From the NCBI GenBank assembly GCA_019240115.1, contig JAFAYV010000031.1:1-64000 (forward strand): a DNA stretch of 64,000 nt, given 5' to 3'. Below the pieces are notes generated by a model. The model saw only the letters and a list, made by a program, of their open reading frames with translations, was not told where the DNA came from and ran no database searches. Positions 52,190 through 64,000 of the stretch are shown here, piece by piece. The stretch comes from Solirubrobacterales bacterium (lineage in GTDB: Bacteria; Actinomycetota; Thermoleophilia; Solirubrobacterales; Solirubrobacteraceae). The position numbers were made by a program, and so were the translations under genes. Every line of letters begins with the position of its first letter. Position 1 is the stretch's first letter.

Positions 52190-52545
52190 GGCGTGCTCGC
52201 GGGCTCGGCCCAGCACTCGGGCCTCCCGCCCGCGAATGCGGGCAGCGGCGCCTTTCGGTCTCCTCCTGCAGCTGCTCGCGCACACCCACGGCTGGCCGTT
52301 CCCCGCGGTCGGCCAGGGCGCGCTCGCGCGGATCGCGCGGCGCGAGGGCGCCACGCTGCGCGGGGACGCCCACGTCGAACGCGTCCTCGTTCGCCGCGGC
52401 CGTACCGTGGGCGTGGCGCTCCGCGGGGTCGAGGAGGTGGTCGCGCCCGCCGTGGTCAGCACGGTCAGTGCCCGGCCGCTGGCGGCGATGCTCCCGGCGC
52501 AGGCCCTCCCCGACCGGCTCTCAGGAGGCCGGACCGGCGGGCGCC
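52190..52545 (+). pseudogene. FAD-dependent (phytoene-desaturase-like) oxidoreductase relic
   Basis: The plus strand reads LAGSAQHSGLPP and then, after a shift near 52250, FGLLLQLLAHTHGWPFPAVG, LARIARREGATLRGDAHVER, VLVRRGRTVGVALRGVEEVV and VVSTVSARPLAAMLPAQALP. This corresponds to the middle of a CrtI-like FAD oxidoreductase of about 500 residues (the 'GWPFPxGG' substrate strand and the second FAD strand 'ADAVVSTVSPxPL'). Both ends are missing. It abuts the 3' end of the membrane subunit gene of the formate dehydrogenase and shares its last bases. Confidence 0.65.
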
Positions 52546-53471
52546 GCTGCGTCGCGCGCCACCGGCTCGGTCCGCGCGCCGCCGATGCGCTCGCCGCGGG
52601 CGATGCCGGCGCGCTGCGGGTCGATGACCGCGTGCGGGTCGGCGGCGGACTGGCGACCCGCCGCGAACACGCTCCACCGCGTGCTGACCGCGCCCGCCAG
52701 CAGCAGGACGCCACCGGCGGCGGCAGCGGTCCGCGAGCGCGAGCCGCGCGCCGCCAGCAGCGCCGAGCCGACCGCCAGGAACCCGCTCGCGGCTTGGTCG
52801 AAGTGCTTGCACCGCCCCTGGGAGTACGGCCGGCCGTGCTCGCCGAGCCCGCGGTGCATCAGCGTGGTGGTCGCCAGCTCCATCGCCGCGCCGCCGAGCG
52901 CCAGCCGTCGCGCCGGCGCCGCCGTCGCCGGATCGGCGCCGATGAGCGCCGCCGCTCCGGCGCTGAGACCGGCCCCGGCGCCGAACACGAACGGCAGCGT
53001 GCGCCGGGCCTCGTGCCACACCGGCACCGCGGTGTTGGTCACCAGAGCCGCGGTGTACGTCGACAGCGGCAGCCCGAGCAGCGCCGCCGCGGGCGCGGCC
53101 ACGCGGGCCAGACGCGGGAACAGGCCGAACCAGGCGTGGGCGGCGGCGATCGCGGTGCTGGCGGCGCTGCCCTGCAGGATCCAGGTGCCGACGCTCATCG
53201 GCGAGGTGACCTTGAACATCCGCAGCATGTTCAAGAAGCGCTGCGGGCGTCCCAGGTCGGCGATGAGCAGCGCCGGGCTGACGCAGATCCCGGCCATGGC
53301 CGCCGCCCAGGCGCGGCGCGCCAGCGCGTCGTCACCGCGCAGCTCGCACAGATAGCCCAGCCCCGCAGAGGCGCCGGCCACGCCGCCGGTGAAGAAGTAC
53401 CACGGGATCTGCCACGTCCAGACCGGCGCCTTGATCACCGGCTGGCCGTGATAGGAGGCTCCGGCGGTCAT
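52521..53471 (-). CDS. nrfD: NrfD/PsrC-like membrane subunit of formate dehydrogenase
   Basis: Membrane protein of 316 residues. PVWTWQIPWYFFTGGVAGAS is the NrfD/PsrC helix-1 motif. Eight helices can be counted, including LARRAWAAAMAGICVSPALL, PMSVGTWILQGSAASTAIAA, LPLSTYTAALVTNTAVPVWH, LALGGAAMELATTTLMHRG and AAAAGGVLLLAGAVSTRWSV. The IADLGRPQRFLNMLR loop is the conserved cytoplasmic segment. Such subunits bind quinone without heme, unlike the cytochrome b gamma subunit of E. coli FdnI. It follows the iron-sulfur subunit by 28 bases and completes an FDH of alpha-beta-NrfD type. Confidence 0.88.
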   Translation of the reverse strand: MTAGASYHGQPVIKAPVWTWQIPWYFFTGGVAGASAGLGYLCELRGDDALARRAWAAAMAGICVSPALLIADLGRPQRFLNMLRMFKVTSPMSVGTWILQGSAASTAIAAAHAWFGLFPRLARVAAPAAALLGLPLSTYTAALVTNTAVPVWHEARRTLPFVFGAGAGLSAGAAALIGADPATAAPARRLALGGAAMELATTTLMHRGLGEHGRPYSQGRCKHFDQAASGFLAVGSALLAARGSRSRTAAAAGGVLLLAGAVSTRWSVFAAGRQSAADPHAVIDPQRAGIARGERIGGARTEPVARDAAAPAGPAS

Positions 53472-53499
53472 CGGCTGCCCGTTGTCGACGCCGCGGCGC

Positions 53500-54393
53500 T
53501 CACCCGCGACCGCCGAGGACCGCCGCCGCCAGTCCCGCGCCGAGCGCGAGCGCGGCCGCGCCGGCCGCCGCCCAGATCGATCCGAGGTCGCGGACGGTGT
53601 CGACCGGATCGGGCGGCAGCCCGTAGACCTCGGGCTCGTCGAGCAGGAGGAAGAACGCTCCGGCGCCGTGGATGCCGTTGTCCTCGTCGGCGAGGTACAG
53701 CCGCGCCTGGTCCTGCCCGGCATCGCGCAGCCTGGCCAGCCGCCGGTCGGCGCGCTCGCGCAGCTCGTCGAGCTCGCCGAACTGGATCGAGTTCGTCGGA
53801 CAGGCCTGAGCGCACGCCGGCTCCTGGTCGTCGCGCAGCCGGTCGTAGCAGAGCGTGCACTTCCACACCCGCCCGTCGTCCTCGCGCTTGTCCAGGACGC
53901 CGAACGGGCACGCGGGCACGCAGTAGCCGCAGCCGTTGCAGACGTCCTCCTGCACGACCACGGTCCCGAACTCGGTGCGAAACAGCGAGCCCGTCGGGCA
54001 GACCTCGAGGCACGCGGCGTCGGTGCAGTGCTTGCACACGTCGGACGCCATCAGCCAGCGGACGCCGTCGCCCTCCTGGTAGGTCTGCACGCCGGCGTCG
54101 ATCGCCGCCCCTCGCTCGGCGATCTGCACGAGCGAGCCGCCGTCGGTCGCGTCGGCCGGCAGCCGTTGCTCGACGAAGGCGACGTGACGCCACCGGTCGG
54201 CCCCCAGGTCGACGGAGTTGTCATACGAGTTGCCGGTGAAGCCCTGCAGCTGCATGGGAACGTGATTCCACTCCTTACAGGCGACCTCGCAGGCCTTGCA
54301 GCCGATGCAGATCGAGGTGTCGGTGAAGAAGCCCATCCGCGGCTGCGCCTGCTCGCCGTACGTCGCCGGCCACGTGTGGACCTCGAGTTTCAC
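53500..54393 (-). CDS. Formate dehydrogenase iron-sulfur (beta) subunit
   Basis: Protein of 297 residues with four [4Fe-4S] sites: CIGCKACEVACKEWN, CKHCTDAACLEVCPTG, CNGCGYCVPACPFG and CTLCYDRLRDDQEPACAQAC. The C-terminus has one membrane helix (IWAAAGAAALALGAGLAAAV), as in FdnH. It transfers electrons from the selenocysteine subunit to the quinone-binding membrane subunit. The GTG start overlaps the alpha-subunit stop (GTGA). The helix anchors it with the cluster domain on the same side as the catalytic subunit. Confidence 0.95.
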   Translation of the reverse strand: MKLEVHTWPATYGEQAQPRMGFFTDTSICIGCKACEVACKEWNHVPMQLQGFTGNSYDNSVDLGADRWRHVAFVEQRLPADATDGGSLVQIAERGAAIDAGVQTYQEGDGVRWLMASDVCKHCTDAACLEVCPTGSLFRTEFGTVVVQEDVCNGCGYCVPACPFGVLDKREDDGRVWKCTLCYDRLRDDQEPACAQACPTNSIQFGELDELRERADRRLARLRDAGQDQARLYLADEDNGIHGAGAFFLLLDEPEVYGLPPDPVDTVRDLGSIWAAAGAAALALGAGLAAAVLGGRG

Positions 54394-57300
54394 TCGCGTA
54401 CCCCGGCGCGGCGGCGGTAGCTGTCGACCAGCGCCACCCGCGCGGGACCCCGCGGCCGGCGGCCGGCCTGGATGTCGCACGTGGAGACCTTGTACTCGCT
54501 GATGTGCACGTTGCTGTCCAGGGAGAGCGGCAGCAGCTCGTTGGCGGAGTCGCCGGTGACGATCCCGACCCCGCCCCAGTGATACGGCGCCCCGACGAGG
54601 TGCATCACCCGACCCTGGACGCGCAGCGGCTTGATCCGGTCGGTGACCATCACCCGCGCCTCGACGGCGTTGCGCGCGGAGACGATCGTCGCCCACTCGC
54701 CGTGCCTCAGGCCCCGCTCGGCGGCGAGCTGGGGAGAGACCTCGCAGAAGAACTCGGGCTGGAGCTCGGCGAGATAGGACACGGTGCGCGACATGCTGCC
54801 GGCGGTGTGATGCTCGGTGAGCCGGTAGGTGGAGAGCACGAACGGGAACACGTCGGCCCCGGCCACCCCGTCGGACGGGTGGTAGGGGTTCTTGTCCCGG
54901 GGGTAGGTCTGGCGGGTCGGGCTCTGCTGCTGGCCGTAGAGCGCGTTCACGAACGGCGACTCCTGGGGCTCGTAGTGGGCCGGCAGCGGCCCGTCGGTGA
55001 GGCCGGTGGGGGAGTAGAGCCAGCCCCGGCCGTCGGGGTGCAGGATGAACGGCTTGTCCCCGGCGATCGCGGCCAGCCCCCTGGCGTCACGCGGCGGGTC
55101 GTAGTCCGGCGCCTTGGTCGGCGGGAAGTCGGGCCCGTCGCCGAGGCTCGTCCACGACCCCGAGGTCTCGTCCCACCACACGTAGCGCTTGCGCTCCGAC
55201 CACGGGCGACCGTCGGGGTCGGCGGAGGCTCGGTTGTAGATGATCCGCGTGTCCTTGGGCCATGCCCACCCCCACTCGCGCGCGATCCAGTTCTGTTCGG
55301 TCCCGGGCTTCTTGCGCGCCGACTGGTTGACGCCGTCCTTGTAGACGCCGCAGTGGATCCACGACCCGCACGACGTGGACCCGTCGTCCTGCAGGTCGTC
55401 GTAGCTGTCGAGGTAGGTCCCGTCGGCGCGGCAACCGGAGATCTCCGCGAGGACCGCGTCGGGATCGGGCTCGGCGTCCCGGCCCTCGAGCGGGTACGCC
55501 CAGGTCAGCTCCCGGATCGGGCGGTCCCGGGGGTCCTCGGAGTCGGCGAGCTTCTCGCGGATGATGCATCCGAGGTGCCATATCCACTGCGTCTCGGAGC
55601 GCGCGTCGCCGGGAGGCTCGCATGCCTTCTCGCGCCACTGCAGCAGGCGCTGGGTGTTCGTGAACGATCCGTCCTTCTCGACGTGCGTGGCCGCCGGCAG
55701 GAAGAAGACCTCGGTGTCGATGCCCTGCGCGGTGACCGTGCCGTCCTCGTGGTCGGGGGAGTCCCTCCAGAACAGCGCCGTCTCCGTCGGCTGGAAGTCG
55801 CGTACGACCAGCCAGTCGAGCTTGGCGAGCGCGGCGCGCATCAGCCCCGAGTTGGCCGAGCCGACGGCCGGGTTCTGCCCGACGCAGAGCATCCCCTGCA
55901 CGCCGCCGTCGAGCATCCTGAGCATCATCGCGTAGTGGGAGTGGTCGCCGTCGACGCGCGGCAGATGCCCGAAGCAGTAGTCGTTGTCCTCGGTCGCCGC
56001 CTCGCCCCACCAGGCCTTGAGCAGCGAGACCATGTAGGACCGCAGGTTGCCCCACGCCCCCGTGGCCGGACCGTTCTCCGCGACGAACGTGTCGAGCGTC
56101 GGATTGCGCTGCGGGTGGGGCATCGGGATGTAGCCCGGCAGGATGTCGTACAGCGTCGGGATGTCGGTCGAGCCCTGGATGTTCGCGTGGCCGCGCAGGG
56201 CGAGGATCCCGCCGCCGGGCCGGCCGATGTTGCCGAGCAGCAGCTGCAGGATCGAAGCGGCGCGGATGTTCTGCACGCCGACCGTGTGCTGGGTCCAGCC
56301 CACGGCGTAGACGACCGCGGAGGTGCGCTCCCGGCCCGAGTTCTCCGCCATCGCCTCCGCGACGGCGACCACGTCCTCGGGGGCGCAGCCGCAGATGTCG
56401 GCGACCGCCTCGGGCGTATAGCGGGCGAAGTGGCGCGTGAGCACCTGCAGGACGCAGCGCTCGTGCTCCATCGTGTCGTCGTAATGGGGCGGCTCGCCGC
56501 CCTCGAGGTCCATCCCGTGGGCGCCCTGGGACTGATCGCCGGAGACGTCCGCGGTCTGCTCGGTCTTGCCGCCGGCGGTCTCGCCGCCGGTTCCGTCATA
56601 GCCCCAGGTGTCGATCCCGTAGAGGCCGTCGTCGGGGTTCCAGCCCGAGAAGAAGCCGGCCTCGTCCTCGGTGTCGCGGAACTCGGGCTTGAGGATCACG
56701 GGGCCGTTCGTGTAGTGGCGGACGTAGTCGGTGAACCACCGGCGGTGGGCGAGGACGTAGTTGATGACCCCGCCGAGGAAGGCGATATCGGTTCCCGCCC
56801 GGATCGACACGTGGCGGTCGGCCATCGCGCTCGTGCGCGTGAAGCGGGGGTCGACGTGGATGACCTTCGCGCCGCGCTCCTTGGCCTCGATCACCCACTG
56901 GAAGCCGACCGGGTGCTGCTCGGCCATGTTCGAGCCCATGATCAGGATGCAGTCGGAGTTCTGCAGATCCTGTTGGAACGTGGTGGCGCCGCCGCGCCCG
57001 AACGAGGTTCCCAGACCGGGGACCGTGGCGCTGTGTCATATCCGCGCCTGGTTCTCGACCGAGACGGCGCCCATCGCCGTGAAGAACTTCTTGATCAGAT
57101 AGTTCTCCTCGTTGTCGAGCGTCGCCCCGCCGAGGAAGTGGATCCCGAGCGTGCGCTTGAGCGGCTCGCCGTCCTCGGTCGTCTCCTCCCAGGTCTCCGC
57201 GCGGGTGCGGATGATCCGCTCGGCGATCATCTCGGTCGCCGCTTGAAGCGACAGGTCCTGCCACTCGGTGGCCCGCGGAGGCCGGTAGCGGACGGTGGTC

Positions 57301-57599
57301 TCGCGCATCGGGTTGTTGACCAGCGCCTCCGAGGCCGAGCCCTTCGGGCACAGGCGGCCGCGCGAGATCGGGGAGTCGGGATCGCCCTCGATCTGGACGA
57401 CCTTCTCGTCCTTGACGTAGACCTTCTGCCCGCAGCCGACCGCGCAGTACGGGCAGATCGACCGCACGACCCGATCGGCCGTGCGCGTCCGGGCGACGAG
57501 CTCCGCGGAGCGCCGCGACTGCGCCGCGCGAGCGAGGCCGAGGCGGTCGCCGGCGAGCTGGCGCAGGATGGGCGGGACGTAGCGGGGCAGCCGGTCCAT
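54390..57599 (-). CDS. fdnG: Formate dehydrogenase alpha subunit, selenocysteine at UGA 57036-57038
   Basis: Molybdenum/tungsten bis-MGD enzyme oxidising formate to CO2; 1069 residues if UGA at 57036-57038 is read as selenocysteine (residue 188). The N-terminal part carries the [4Fe-4S] ligands CPYCAVGCGQKVYVKD and GRLCPKG, then VENQARI-Sec-HSATVPGLGTSFGRG, exactly the FdnG active-site context. The next Met after the UGA (56939) is internal (MGSNMAEQHP). Molybdopterin-binding domains continue (GGGILALRGHANIQGS, AVGSANSGL) to the C-terminal beta domain (APYHWGGVGIVTGDSANELL). No twin-arginine signal is found at the N-terminus (MDRLPRYVPPILRQLAGDRL), unlike E. coli FdnG. The start ATG at 57599 is preferred over 57656. 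Confidence 0.95.
57006..57024 (-). promoter_or_regulatory. Bacterial SECIS hairpin after the selenocysteine codon
   Basis: On the mRNA strand GGTCCCCGGTCTGGGAACC forms a stem (GGTCCC with GGGAACC, one bulged A) and a loop containing GGTCT. This loop is the conserved SelB-binding element of the E. coli fdhF/fdnG SECIS. The stem begins 11 bases after UGA, which is the E. coli spacing as I recall it. It is read by the SelB protein encoded at the right end of the window. Confidence 0.8.
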
Positions 57600-57676
57600 C
57601 CTGCGCGGACTACCCCCGGGGCAAAACCGGCTAACCAGAGCTGCGGGCGCGGGCACTGGCGCGCCGGTGAGGCGCG

Positions 57677-57952
57677 TCAGGCGTCTGAATGCTGATCGGT
57701 GTCGCCGAGCGGGCTGTCGTCGTCCTCATTGGGCTCGAACGGCGCGTCGACGTCGGTGCTCGACGAGCCCCCCTCGGCTCCGGGCTCCCGCGGATCGTCC
57801 TCGGGCGAGCGCTCGGCGTCCTCCGGCCGACCCTCGCCGTGGCGCGGCGTGTCGTCCTCTTCGCCGTGGCGCGGCGTGTCGTGCTCCTCGTCGTCGGCGC
57901 GGCCGCTCGGGCCCTGGATGATCCGCCGCACGGCGTGCGCGAGCGAGCTCAC
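57677..57952 (-). CDS. Small acidic protein between ADH and formate dehydrogenase
   Basis: Protein of 91 residues. The first 15 are a basic amphipathic helix (VSSLAHAVRRIIQGPSGRAD); the rest is strongly acidic and disordered, with the unit DTPRHGE twice and an ending EPNEDDDSPLGDTDQHSDA. The GTG start overlaps the stop of the dehydrogenase gene upstream (GTGA), and the formate dehydrogenase gene starts 77 bases after its stop, so the three are probably one transcript. No family recognised; coding is supported by the overlap and by neighbours, not by homology. Confidence 0.6.
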   Translation of the reverse strand: MSSLAHAVRRIIQGPSGRADDEEHDTPRHGEEDDTPRHGEGRPEDAERSPEDDPREPGAEGGSSSTDVDAPFEPNEDDDSPLGDTDQHSDA

Positions 57953-59148
57953 GAGACCGAGGCGGGATCGAGAGCCACCTTGTGCCACCCTTCGGCGCGC
58001 CGGTCGAAGGTCTCGTAGGCATCGACGGCCCCGGTGAGGTCGTCGATCTGCGAGATCACGTTCGATGGCGTGACGGCGCCGGAGCGCACCAGCTCGACGA
58101 GCTCGGGCACGTACCGGCGATGGTTGCAGTTGCCCATCTGAATCGTGAGGTTCCGGTTCATCGCCATGCCGATCGGGAAGTGCTCGGCCGCTGGCGGGTA
58201 GACGCCGATGATGCCGATCGTGCCGGCCTTGGCCACCGCCTCGACCGCCCAGCGCAGCGCCTGGGAGGGCGCATCGCCCGGCCGCCGGAACGGGGAGTCG
58301 TCTCCCGGCTGATCGGGAGCGACCTCCTGGACCTCGGAGTCGTAGCCGGGATCGCGCTGGTCGCCGGGGGACTCGGCGTCGATCCCGACGGCGTCGATGA
58401 CCCGATCCGGTCCCGCGCCGCCGGTCAGCCGCTTCAGCGTGTCCACCGGATCCTCGCGCGAGAAGTCGACCACCTCGGCGCCGAGGCGCCGAGCCTGCTC
58501 GAGGCGCGAGGCGATCTGATCGACCGCGAGCACGCGTCCGGCGCCCTGCAGCTGAGCCGACAGGATCGCGAACATGCCGACGACGCCGCTGCCCAACACC
58601 GCGACGGTGTCGCCGGTCTGCACGTCCGCCAGCCGCGCGCCGAACCACGCCGTCGGGAAGATGTCAGAGAGCAGCAGCGCGTCGTCGTCGGCGACCTCGT
58701 CGGGGAGCTTGACGCACGTGACGTGGGCATAGGGAACGCGCGCCCTCTCGGCCTGCAGGCCATCGATCGGCCCGGTCGCCTCGGGTCCCCCGAAGAAGCA
58801 GGTGCCGGCGTCCGGGCCGTTGGGGTTCGCGTTCTGGCACTGGGCGTAGTAGCCGGCGCGGCAGTAGTTGCACGAGCCGCAGCCGATCGTCGAGCAGATG
58901 ACGACGCGATCGCCGACGACGAGATTGCGCACGTCGTCGCCGACCCGCTCAACGACGCCGACGCCCTCGTGGCCGAGGATCGTGCCCGGCGTCATCCCGC
59001 TCATCGAGCCGCGCACGAAGTGCAGGTCGGTCCCGCAGATCGCGCTCGCGGTCAGACGCACGATGGCGTCGGTGGGCTCGCGGATCTCGGGCTCCGGGAC
59101 ATCGTCGACCCGGATGTCACCCACCGCGTGGAAGACGACGGCTCTCAT
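57949..59148 (-). CDS. Zinc alcohol dehydrogenase, formaldehyde-dehydrogenase-like
   Basis: Zinc MDR enzyme of 399 residues. Catalytic zinc: SAICGTDLHFVRGSM (Cys) and LGHEGVGVVERVG (His-Glu). Structural zinc: CGSCNYCRAGYYAQCQ. Cofactor site: TVAVLGSGVVGMFAILSAQL with VLAVDQI (Asp, NAD). An insertion of about 45 residues after GPDRVIDAVGIDAESPG (DQRDPGYDSEVQEVAPDQPG) and GYYAQCQNANPNG loops resemble the glutathione-independent formaldehyde dehydrogenase/dismutase branch. AAGGAG is before the ATG at 59148. Lying first in a transcript with formate dehydrogenase, it would supply formate from formaldehyde; this is inference. Confidence 0.88.
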   Translation of the reverse strand: MRAVVFHAVGDIRVDDVPEPEIREPTDAIVRLTASAICGTDLHFVRGSMSGMTPGTILGHEGVGVVERVGDDVRNLVVGDRVVICSTIGCGSCNYCRAGYYAQCQNANPNGPDAGTCFFGGPEATGPIDGLQAERARVPYAHVTCVKLPDEVADDDALLLSDIFPTAWFGARLADVQTGDTVAVLGSGVVGMFAILSAQLQGAGRVLAVDQIASRLEQARRLGAEVVDFSREDPVDTLKRLTGGAGPDRVIDAVGIDAESPGDQRDPGYDSEVQEVAPDQPGDDSPFRRPGDAPSQALRWAVEAVAKAGTIGIIGVYPPAAEHFPIGMAMNRNLTIQMGNCNHRRYVPELVELVRSGAVTPSNVISQIDDLTGAVDAYETFDRRAEGWHKVALDPASVS

Positions 59149-59196
59149 GACAGGACGCTCCTTATGGCGTGGATGCGAAGCAAGTGTCGGATCGAC

Positions 59197-59219
59197 TACC
59201 CCGACTGGTGCCGCGAAAC
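59197..59219 (-). promoter_or_regulatory. SigB/SigF-type promoter of the dehydrogenase-FDH cluster
   Basis: On the minus strand GTTT (59219-59216) and GGGTA (59201-59197) are separated by 14 bases, the same architecture as the promoters at 43937 and 59257. The ATG of the zinc dehydrogenase is 49 bases downstream. Confidence 0.55.
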
Positions 59220-59256
59220 GATTTCTCAGACGTGACCATCCGCCGTGCGGACTTCG

Positions 59257-59280
59257 GTTTCCCGCCGGGTCGCACGGGTA
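59257..59280 (+). promoter_or_regulatory. SigB/SigF-type promoter, probable leaderless mRNA
   Basis: GTTT (59257-59260), 15-base spacer, GGGTA (59276-59280). The ATG of the small membrane protein at 59292 begins 12 bases after the -10 box and has no Shine-Dalgarno, so transcription should start close to the ATG. It is divergent from, and 37 bases from, the promoter at 59197. Confidence 0.55.
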
Positions 59281-59291
59281 GCGCACCGACC

Positions 59292-61243: not shown

Positions 61244-62005
61244 ATGCCGGAGCATCGGACACGACCCCACGCCGAGCGTGCGCTGTTCGCCGCTTGGAGC
61301 GAGCGCGGGGACCGCTGCGCGCGAGCGCGGCTGATCGAGACCCATCTGCCGCTGGCGCGGCGGCTGGCGGCGCGCTACCGCAATCCCAACGAGCCCTTCG
61401 AGGACCTCGTGCAGGTCGCCAGCCTGGGGCTCATCCAGGCCGTGGATCGCTTCGACCCCGGCCGCGGCGTGGCGTTCTCTTCGTTCGCGATCCCCACCAT
61501 CCTCGGCGAGCTGCGCCGCCACTTCCGCAACACCGGCTGGTCGGCGCACGTGCCCCGCCGCGCCCAGGAGCTCTCGCTGCGCGTGGACCGCGCCGCGAAC
61601 CAGCTGACCGGCGAGCACGGGCGCGCCCCGAGCGTCGGTCAGATCGCGCAGTATCTCGAGCTCTCCCGCGAAGAGGTCCTCCACGGCCTGGAGGCCGGCG
61701 TCGCGCACTACGCGAGCTCCCTGGACGCGCCCGCGACCGGCGAGAACGACCACAGCAACCCCGAGCCGCTGTCCGAGCTCATCGGCGCAGAGGACGATCA
61801 CTTCGCGCTCATCGACGCGCTCGAGTCGCTGTCGGGCGCGATGCACCGGTTGCCCTACACCGAACGCCGCGTGCTGTGGCTGCGCCTGCACCGAGATCTC
61901 AAGCAGTCAGAGATCGCCCAGCGGCTCGACATCTCGCAGATGCAGGTCTCCCGGCTGCTGCGCCGCGCCAACGCCCGCCTGCGCGAGCACGCCTGCCTGG
62001 CCTGA
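61244..62005 (+). CDS. SigB/SigF-type (group 3) RNA polymerase sigma factor
   Basis: Sigma factor of 253 residues. Region 2: ARARLIETHLPLARRLAARY, FEDLVQVASLGLIQAVDRFD, AFSSFAIPTILGELRRHFRN (the GExxxRHFRDxxW type hallmark of SigB/SigF). Region 3: RRAQELSLRVDRAANQLTGE, SVGQIAQYLELSREEVLHGL. Region 4: LPYTERRVLWLRLHRDLKQS, EIAQRLDISQMQVSRLLRRA. Such factors respond to general or oxidative stress through anti-sigma/anti-anti-sigma partners, which are not adjacent. Its expected promoter GTTT-N-GGGTA occurs at least three times in the last 20 kb of the window. Confidence 0.95.
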   Translation: MPEHRTRPHAERALFAAWSERGDRCARARLIETHLPLARRLAARYRNPNEPFEDLVQVASLGLIQAVDRFDPGRGVAFSSFAIPTILGELRRHFRNTGWSAHVPRRAQELSLRVDRAANQLTGEHGRAPSVGQIAQYLELSREEVLHGLEAGVAHYASSLDAPATGENDHSNPEPLSELIGAEDDHFALIDALESLSGAMHRLPYTERRVLWLRLHRDLKQSEIAQRLDISQMQVSRLLRRANARLREHACLA

Positions 62006-62036: not shown

Positions 62037-62777
62037 GTGTACAAGACGATCGTCCACGACGGGGTCAGCGATCAGGTCGCGCTCGAGGAGCCGCTCGAGA
62101 TCCGGGTCGACGGTGCCGCGCTCGCGGTCACGATGCGCACGCCGGGTCACGACGAGGAGCTCGCGCTCGGGTTCCTGTACGGCGAGGGGCTGATCGAGGG
62201 CCCCCACGAGGCGGGTCTGACCGAGGACCTCGCCGCCAACACGATCGAGGTCCGGGGTCCGCTCGTGCGCAACCCCGGCGCCCGCCGGTTCTACACCTCG
62301 TCGTCGTGCGGCGTCTGCGGCAAGGGTGCGCTCGAGGAGGTTGCGGTGACGAGCGCGCCGCTGCCGCGCGGGCCCGAGATCGCCCGCGAGCTGGTCGCCG
62401 AGCTGCCGGCGCGGCTGCGCCAGCCCGGGTTCGAGCGCACCGGCGGCCTGCACGCCACCGGGCTGTTCGACGCGCGCGGGGAGCTCCTGTTCACGCGCGA
62501 GGACGTCGGGCGCCACAACGCGATGGACAAGGTCGTCGGCCGCGCGCTGCTCGACGGCCTGGTGCCGCTCGGCGAGCGGGTGCTGTGCGTCAGCGGCCGG
62601 CTGTCGTTCGAGCTCGTCCAGAAGGCGGCGGTGGCCGGGGCGCCGATCCTCGTGGGGGTCGGCGCGCCGAGCTCTCTCGCGGTCGAGCTGGCGGCCGATC
62701 GCGGTGTGACGCTGTGCGGGTTCGCGCGCCGCGGCAGCGTCAACGTCTACACGCACGAACGCCGCGTCCGAGGCTGA
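62037..62777 (+). CDS. fdhD: FdhD, sulfur carrier for formate dehydrogenase
   Basis: Protein of 246 residues. FdhD receives sulfur from a cysteine desulfurase and sulfurates the molybdenum cofactor of formate dehydrogenase. The catalytic cysteines are in the flexible loop SSCGVCGKGALEEV (CxxC). Other signatures: LALGFLYGEGLIEGPHE, GGLHATGLFDARGELLFTRE, DVGRHNAMDKVVGRALLDGL and SGRLSFELVQKAAVAGAPIL. The start is GTG with an AGGG site close by. It lies 31 bases downstream of the sigma gene, possibly co-transcribed, and is convergent with selB. Both support active maturation of the nearby Sec-FDH. Confidence 0.95.
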   Translation: MYKTIVHDGVSDQVALEEPLEIRVDGAALAVTMRTPGHDEELALGFLYGEGLIEGPHEAGLTEDLAANTIEVRGPLVRNPGARRFYTSSSCGVCGKGALEEVAVTSAPLPRGPEIARELVAELPARLRQPGFERTGGLHATGLFDARGELLFTREDVGRHNAMDKVVGRALLDGLVPLGERVLCVSGRLSFELVQKAAVAGAPILVGVGAPSSLAVELAADRGVTLCGFARRGSVNVYTHERRVRG

Positions 62778-62783
62778 CCGCGG

Positions 62784-64000
62784 TCAGCCGTCGCGACGGC
62801 CGGCGGACGGCCGCAGCACCCGGCTGTCGTCCTCGCGCCGGAGCGTCACCCGCGCGGCGTCGAGATGCTCGAGCAGCGCCTGAGCGTACTTGCGCGAGGT
62901 CTGCAGCTCGTCGCGCAGCCGGGCCAGCGTGACGCTGCCCTCGTCGGCGGCGATCCGCTCGACGACGTCGCGGACGTGCTCGATCGCATCCGGGTGGGCA
63001 TACATCGAGCGGCCGACGCGGACGACCCGGCCGGCGGCGCGCAGCGTGGCCAGGTGTCGGGCGTCGTCGCCGAGGTCGGCCTCGCTCGGCGGCTCGTGGC
63101 CGGCCGCGCGCAGCCGCCGCTCGAGCGCGAGCGCCGCCGCGTCGATCGGGGGGGGCGCGGGGGTGGAGGGTGGGGGCGGCTCAGGGGTGGGGGCGGGGGC
63201 GGGACGGCGCCCGCCCGCGTCGGCGGTGACGATCACCCCGCCGCCGATCGTGTCGGGGGGGCTGATCCGTCGCACGACGAGCCGGTCGCCGTCGGCCGCG
63301 ATCAGCGGTCGCTCGGCGCGCAGCTGCCACCGCCCGCCGGCCCCGCCGGGGGCGTCGGGCGCGCCGGGGGCGTCGGGCGCGCCACGGGCGGTGGGGGCGT
63401 CGGTCGCGCCGGGGGCGTCGGTGGCGCCACGGGCGGTGGGGGCGTCGGTCGCGCCGGGGGCGCCGGGGAGCCACACCGCCCGCGCGGGGGTCGCGCGCGT
63501 GCCGTGGTGGACCTGCACTCGCTCGCGGTCCTCGAGGCGCTCGGCGAGATCGAGCTCGGCGTCGATCCGATAGGTCGCGACGAGCGGCGCCTCGGCGGAC
63601 GTCAGCACGTCGCCCCGGCCGACCTGGCGGCGGCCGACGCCGGCGAGGTTGACCGCGGTGCGCTGACCGGCGAGCGCACGGTCGACCGACCGGTCATGCA
63701 CGTGCAGGCCGCGCACGCGCGCGTCGCGCCCGCCGGGCAGCAGGCGGAGGTGGTCCCCGCGCGCGATCGAGCCCGACCACAAGGTGCCGGTGACGACGGT
63801 GCCGGCACCCTTGATCGTGAACGCCCGGTCGATGTGCAGGACCGGGGGCCGCTCGCTGATCGCCCGCCCGGGCGTCGCGGACGCGGCGCGCTGCAGCGCG
63901 GCGGCGACGTCGTCGATCCCGGCCCCCGTGCGCGCCGAGCAGACGACCACCTCGGCGCCGGGCATCAGCTCGGCGGCGGCCTCCGCGGCGAGCTCGGGAT
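62784..64000 (-). CDS. selB: Selenocysteine-specific elongation factor, 3' part
   Basis: About 405 residues are visible; the gene continues beyond the right edge, which cuts inside the GTPase domain (VVVCSARTGAGIDDVAAALQ). Domain II: VLHIDRAFTIKGAGTVVTGT, LRLLPGGRDARVRGLHVHDR, RTAVNLAGVGRRQVGRGDVL. Domain III ends near IGGGVIVTADAG. The C-terminal winged-helix domains follow (LATLRAAGRVVRVGRSMYAH and LARLRDELQTSRKYAQALLE and LDAARVTLRREDDSRVL), which bind the SECIS hairpin. Domain III contains a 45-residue Gly/Ala/Pro/Thr/Asp repeat insert (units such as GATDAP). The upstream part and likely selA/selC lie outside the window. Confidence 0.95.
   Translation of the reverse strand, partial: PELAAEAAAELMPGAEVVVCSARTGAGIDDVAAALQRAASATPGRAISERPPVLHIDRAFTIKGAGTVVTGTLWSGSIARGDHLRLLPGGRDARVRGLHVHDRSVDRALAGQRTAVNLAGVGRRQVGRGDVLTSAEAPLVATYRIDAELDLAERLEDRERVQVHHGTRATPARAVWLPGAPGATDAPTARGATDAPGATDAPTARGAPDAPGAPDAPGGAGGRWQLRAERPLIAADGDRLVVRRISPPDTIGGGVIVTADAGGRRPAPAPTPEPPPPSTPAPPPIDAAALALERRLRAAGHEPPSEADLGDDARHLATLRAAGRVVRVGRSMYAHPDAIEHVRDVVERIAADEGSVTLARLRDELQTSRKYAQALLEHLDAARVTLRREDDSRVLRPSAGRRDG

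What the first reader, a model, noticed from the sequence alone, without database searches (positions are those of the whole stretch)
54390..57599. In-frame UGA in the formate dehydrogenase gene encodes selenocysteine
Both halves of FdnG flank a single TGA at 57036-57038, with perfectly conserved context on either side (NQARI before, HSATVPGLG after) and no other change. selB and fdhD are encoded in the same window. A standard annotation would split or shorten this gene. Selenoproteins are sporadic in actinobacteria, so its presence here with local maturation genes is worth recording.
Basis: partly seen in the sequence, partly recalled or inferred. Interest (0 to 1): 0.65.

Follow-up and report, generated by a model that had tools for sequence, protein, structure and literature searches.

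The report
Ordinary selenocysteine formate dehydrogenase, complete machinery
A soil actinobacterium (order Solirubrobacterales, judging by its nearest relatives) reads one UGA stop codon inside its formate dehydrogenase gene as the amino acid selenocysteine, with every gene needed for this next door; it is a real but already familiar kind of gene, widespread in its relatives.

Summary
On the minus strand, 57599-54390 reads as one 1069-aa formate dehydrogenase catalytic subunit, interrupted only by TGA at 57038-57036 (residue 188), the active-site Sec/Cys position. The family is curated (NCBIfam NF041513, 1777 bits across the TGA). A bacterial SECIS hairpin starts 11 nt after the TGA, loop GGUCU, in the same register as E. 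coli fdhF and fdnG; across relatives its stem co-varies at free third-codon positions, and it is broken in Cys versions. At this codon 103 of 110 relatives have TGA, 3 TAG, 4 TGC; 48 of 51 sampled class genomes with the TGA gene have selA. Sec insertion is very well supported, though no protein was seen. It is not sporadic: 151 of 299 sampled class genomes have selA. Novelty is low. Noticed outside the window: a second UGA formate dehydrogenase beside selD (C68:67025-68968), whose iron-sulphur half is a separate gene.

The parts
54390..57599 (-). fdnG-like formate dehydrogenase catalytic (alpha) subunit, 1069 aa with Sec188; Fe4S4 domain, molybdopterin domain, dinucleotide-binding domain
57036..57038 (-). 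in-frame TGA read as selenocysteine (residue 188)
   Evidence: aligns with the Sec (X) of Desulfovibrio gigas FDH 1h0h
57006..57024 (-). bacterial SECIS hairpin GGUCCCC-GGUCU-GGGAACC, 11 nt after the TGA; one C-A mismatch in this genome, usually paired in relatives
53500..54393 (-). iron-sulphur (beta) subunit, FdnH-like, with one C-terminal hydrophobic segment
52521..53519 (-). NrfD-like membrane anchor (weak Pfam match, E 2e-9; start codon not settled)
62037..62777 (+). fdhD, sulphurtransferase needed for formate dehydrogenase maturation
62784..64000 (-). selB, Sec-specific elongation factor (540 aa; continues to contig position 64406 beyond the window). Beyond the window on the same strand: selA C68:64449-about 65612, selC C68:65758-65852, selD C68:65889-66908

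Best explanation
The gene encodes the catalytic subunit of a membrane-associated, molybdenum- or tungsten-dependent formate dehydrogenase of the actinobacterial FdnG type. SelD makes selenophosphate, SelA converts Ser-tRNA-Sec to Sec-tRNA-Sec on the selC tRNA (anticodon UCA), and SelB-GTP carries it to the ribosome by binding the hairpin just after the UGA, so that UGA188 is read as Sec in place of termination. Sec188 then ligates the metal of the bis-MGD cofactor and formate is oxidised to CO2, with electrons passing through the Fe-S beta subunit to an NrfD-type anchor and probably to quinone. Shown here by sequence: the continuous reading frame, the conserved Sec/Cys column, the hairpin and its covariation, and all four sel genes. 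Inferred from the known E. coli pathway: Sec insertion itself, metal ligation, formate as substrate and quinone as acceptor.
For: One frame of 1069 aa broken only by the TGA; NF041513 match over 10-1064 with 1777 bits; Sec-containing solved relatives align across the site. selA (467 bits), selD (378 bits) and selB (306 bits) above curated cut-offs and tRNA-Sec with anticodon tca, all on contig C68. SECIS loop GGUCU beginning 19 nt after the TGA, identical in register to E. coli fdhF (GGTCT) and fdnG (AGTCT). Pair 15-27, both free third-codon positions, occurs as C-G, T-A, T-G and G-C and is paired in 100 of 103 relatives; in 30 distinct hairpins 27 pair against 16.2 expected when shuffled. Cys relatives lose pairs 16-26 and 18-24. 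Co-occurrence of the TGA gene with selA: 48 of 51 genomes against 103 of 248 without it (Fisher P 4e-13, relatedness not corrected). The two no-stop genomes G160 (same genus; Cys codon TGT) and G280 (TGC) had no selA match.
Against: No protein or ribosome data. The hairpin of this genome has one C-A mismatch and taken alone is not better than synonymous-codon shuffles (6 pairs, P 0.43); the support comes from the family. Three TGA-bearing genomes (G091, G077, G293) showed no selA match, perhaps through incomplete assemblies. Substrate and membrane attachment are by homology only.
Confidence: 0.97

Rival explanations
1. The TGA is a sequencing or assembly error or a recent nonsense mutation in a Cys or Sec gene.
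For: The genome is a draft in 99 contigs with an estimated contamination of 4.22%.
Against: The same TGA at the same codon in 103 of 110 relatives from many independent assemblies, including isolates; downstream frame under the same constraint as upstream.
Confidence: 0.005
2. UGA ends translation at residue 187 and a separate protein begins at the downstream ATG (56939).
For: Mechanical ORF calling gives ORFs 57036-57656 and 54390-56939.
Against: The stretch between TGA and that ATG is the best conserved part of the gene at amino-acid level and holds the active-site loop; Cys homologues run straight through it; complete Sec machinery present.
Confidence: 0.01
3. UGA is read through by another route (general UGA reassignment or tRNA-Trp misreading) so residue 188 is not Sec.
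For: None seen.
Against: Other genes in the window end in TGA normally, including this one; a tRNA-Sec, SelA, SelB, SelD and SECIS are all present; relatives use TGC or TAG at this codon, fitting Sec/Cys and not Trp.
Confidence: 0.01

Closest known systems
Actinobacterial formate dehydrogenase NF041513 (formate_DH_Act)
   Same: Full-length match, 1777 bits against a cut-off of 1400, spanning the Sec site
   Different: Nothing of note
E. coli FdnG (formate dehydrogenase N) and FdhF, Sec by UGA
   Same: Sec column, SECIS loop and its distance from UGA, sel gene set
   Different: No twin-arginine-like hydrophobic N-terminus was seen here (maximum 15-residue hydropathy 0.93), NrfD-like anchor in place of cytochrome b FdnI, and the sel genes are clustered near the FDH
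Sec operons clustered with fdhA, reported for Pseudomonadales and other bacteria (PMC1794560, PMC5029168)
   Same: sel genes and the formate dehydrogenase lie close together
   Different: Here selD and selC are also in the cluster and a second Sec formate dehydrogenase flanks it
UAG-decoded Sec in Geodermatophilaceae (Mukai 2016, as cited in PMC5330540)
   Same: Same formate dehydrogenase codon, seen as TAG in Blastococcus and Modestobacter loci L089, L106, L107
   Different: This genome uses UGA and an anticodon UCA

Membership tests
Bacterial selenoprotein (UGA-Sec) | In-frame TGA with coding constraint on both sides | tested here: met
Bacterial selenoprotein (UGA-Sec) | TGA aligns with Sec or Cys in homologues | tested here: met
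Bacterial selenoprotein (UGA-Sec) | SECIS hairpin immediately downstream | tested here: met
   family-level support, this copy has one mismatch
Bacterial selenoprotein (UGA-Sec) | selA, selB, selC, selD in the genome | tested here: met
Bacterial selenoprotein (UGA-Sec) | Selenium in the protein at this residue | not testable with these tools
   needs mass spectrometry or 75Se labelling
Molybdopterin formate dehydrogenase, FdnG/NF041513 | Curated family score over cut-off along the whole length | tested here: met
Molybdopterin formate dehydrogenase, FdnG/NF041513 | Fe4S4, molybdopterin and dinucleotide-binding domains | tested here: met
Molybdopterin formate dehydrogenase, FdnG/NF041513 | Partner Fe-S subunit and membrane anchor encoded beside it | tested here: met
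   anchor is NrfD-like, weak match
E. coli-type periplasmic FDH-N | N-terminal twin-arginine signal with hydrophobic segment | tested here: not met
   Crude hydropathy only, on the ATG start at 57599; an alternative GTG start at 57656 was not analysed

The most novel reading that the evidence does not exclude
Outside the finding: the sel cluster is flanked on its other side by a second UGA formate dehydrogenase whose catalytic subunit is split between two genes at the domain boundary. The Sec-bearing molybdopterin part (C68:67025-68968) has no Fe4S4 domain; that domain sits on a separate protein (C68:70827-71888) with 2Fe-2S and 4Fe-4S domains, after a NuoE/NuoF-like gene. The predicted enzyme is an NAD-linked formate dehydrogenase reassembled from halves, found widely in actinobacteria.
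Probability: 0.85. Interest if true: 0.35.

Novelty: already known. Interest (0 to 1): 0.17.

Why it matters
It is a correct annotation point: gene callers without Sec handling would report two broken genes in place of one working enzyme, and the organism would look unable to oxidise formate with this enzyme. It adds another lineage with a complete, clustered Sec system. It does not change understanding of selenocysteine. The split second enzyme next to it could be a useful natural case for asking how the iron-sulphur and molybdenum halves of a formate dehydrogenase find each other.

Tried and rejected
Rfam scan of the window: no match; selC lies 1.8 kb past the window edge. Other Rfam tRNA-Sec matches in the genome that were checked (C75, C9, C8) are tRNA-Ser by ARAGORN. 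TAG stops reported in distant FDHs of G016 and G104 looked at first like UAG-Sec; in G104 the TAG is the terminal stop, and G016 has TGA at the Sec site. Antisense ORF 54504-57695: no domain. Synonymous-codon shuffle on the single window hairpin: not significant. A first query for the second FDH was one base out of frame and was repeated correctly. No CUA-anticodon tRNA was found in the 19-kb Blastococcus and Modestobacter loci, as expected if it lies elsewhere in those genomes.

Full report
Check of the observation. Translating 57599-54390 on the minus strand with TGA as Sec gives 1069 residues with a single internal TGA at codon 188 (57036-57038) and a terminal TGA. The frame matches NF041513, the curated actinobacterial formate dehydrogenase, over residues 10-1064 with 1777 bits (cut-off 1400), and has the Fe4S4, molybdopterin and dinucleotide-binding domains. 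In the alignment to the solved Desulfovibrio gigas enzyme (1h0h) the TGA falls on that enzyme's X residue, its Sec.

Is the downstream part translated? Against close relatives the codon-position pattern is the same before and after the TGA, and the 32 codons between the TGA and the next ATG are the most conserved of the gene. A terminated product with a separate downstream gene does not fit.

Is there a Sec machinery? The genome search put all four genes on the same contig (C68) as the window, next to each other and on one strand: selB C68:62784-64406, selA 64449-about 65612, selC 65758-65852 (tRNA-Sec, anticodon UCA), selD 65889-66908. SelB has its GTPase, domain 2, SelB beta-barrel and winged-helix matches. 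SelD has Cys at its own active site (HGAGCGCK). fdhD lies at 62037-62777 (+) and a SigB/F-type sigma factor at 61244-62005 (+).

SECIS. The hairpin GGUCCCC-GGUCU-GGGAACC begins 11 nt after the TGA (57024-57006). E. coli fdhF (TGA CACGGCCCATC GGTTGCA GGTCT GCACC) and fdnG (AGTCT loop) carry their loop at the same distance (sequences fetched). Over 103 TGA-bearing loci the loop is always GGTCT, AGTCT or AGTTT. Mean pairs are 6.64 of 7 against 5.34 in synonymous-codon shuffles (highest of 300 shuffles 5.54). Pair 15-27 joins two four-fold-free third positions (Val and Gly) and occurs as C-G 50, T-A 27, T-G 12 and G-C 10; among 30 distinct hairpins 27 pair where shuffling gives 16.2. In the four Cys loci pairs 16-26 and 18-24 are broken. 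Caveats: relatedness is not corrected in these shuffles; the lost pairs in the Cys loci accompany an amino-acid change (Pro to Ala, Ile or Thr); and the window's own copy has one C-A mismatch and would not stand out alone (P 0.43).

Distribution. In genome contigs the 80 best relatives plus 30 loci from the class search show 103 TGA, 4 TGC and 3 TAG at this codon. The nearest named relatives are Solirubrobacterales, with further ones in Conexibacter, Solirubrobacter, Streptomyces, Amycolatopsis, Pseudonocardia and Actinomadura. In 299 class genomes 151 have selA; of 51 with the TGA gene 48 have selA. The same-genus genome G160 carries a 57% identical copy with a Cys codon and has no selA match. 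The trait is thus common but comes and goes, as described for formate dehydrogenase, the commonest bacterial selenoprotein (PMC5029168; Sec-to-Cys changes mostly in this family, PMC1794560).

How it works. By the established E. coli pathway (PMC4513850): SelD supplies selenophosphate, SelA makes Sec-tRNA-Sec, SelB binds the SECIS and delivers it to the UGA. Sec188 would then bind the metal of the bis-MGD cofactor and take part in formate oxidation. The neighbouring genes encode an Fe-S subunit (53500-54393) and an NrfD-like anchor (52521-53519, weak match), so electrons probably go to quinone; no twin-arginine-like hydrophobic N-terminus was seen. These last steps are inferred.

A second Sec gene beyond the window. 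Immediately after selD, in the opposite direction, C68:67025-68968 reads as a 647-aa formate dehydrogenase catalytic domain with TGA at codon 81 (C68:67265-67267; CNRT-U-HAPSVVGLA) and a perfect 7-bp hairpin with loop GGTCT in the same register. It lacks the N-terminal Fe4S4 domain, and no such motif was found in the roughly 1.5 kb upstream of it or of the close relatives examined. That domain is on a separate protein 1.9 kb downstream, C68:70827-71888, together with 2Fe-2S and 4Fe-4S domains, after a NuoE/NuoF-like ORF. The same arrangement, molybdopterin half first and Fe-S half about 1.9 kb later, was found in all nine relatives whose DNA reached far enough. 44 of 396 phylum genomes have the catalytic half at E below 1e-200, 39 of them with the TGA. 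The predicted product is an NAD-linked formate dehydrogenase whose alpha subunit is split at a domain boundary. I found no description of it in the limited paper searches made, which is weak evidence of novelty.

Verdict. The finding is correct and its interpretation is sound. As a scientific finding it is an ordinary member of the best-known bacterial selenoprotein family, so interest is low. The split second enzyme is the more unusual thing nearby.

Noticed in passing
Contig C68:67025-68968 (+), L022:17025-18968, 3 kb beyond the window end: Second UGA-containing formate dehydrogenase beside selD, TGA at C68:67265-67267 with a perfect SECIS; its Fe4S4 half is a separate gene at C68:70827-71888 (L023:827-1888) after a NuoE/NuoF-like ORF. 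Arrangement conserved in nine of nine relatives examined.
   Followed up: partly
L089:8535, L106:8535, L107:8535: Two Blastococcus loci and one Modestobacter locus carry TAG in place of TGA at the same Sec codon, with the SECIS intact. Matches the UAG-Sec recoding already reported for Geodermatophilaceae (PMC5330540, citing Mukai 2016).
   Followed up: partly
L051 (G280), L136 (G160, same genus): Cys-codon versions of the same formate dehydrogenase (TGC and TGT) in genomes with no selA match: Sec-to-Cys replacement within the family and genus.
   Followed up: yes
61244-62005 (+): SigB/SigF-type sigma factor gene directly upstream of fdhD, between the formate dehydrogenase and the sel cluster; a possible regulator, not tested.
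   Followed up: no
57949-59286 (-): Zinc-dependent alcohol/formaldehyde dehydrogenase-like gene just upstream of the formate dehydrogenase, which suggests a formaldehyde-to-formate-to-CO2 route.
   Followed up: no
G091, G077, G293: Three class genomes with a TGA formate dehydrogenase but no selA match; missing contigs or another Sec route.
   Followed up: no
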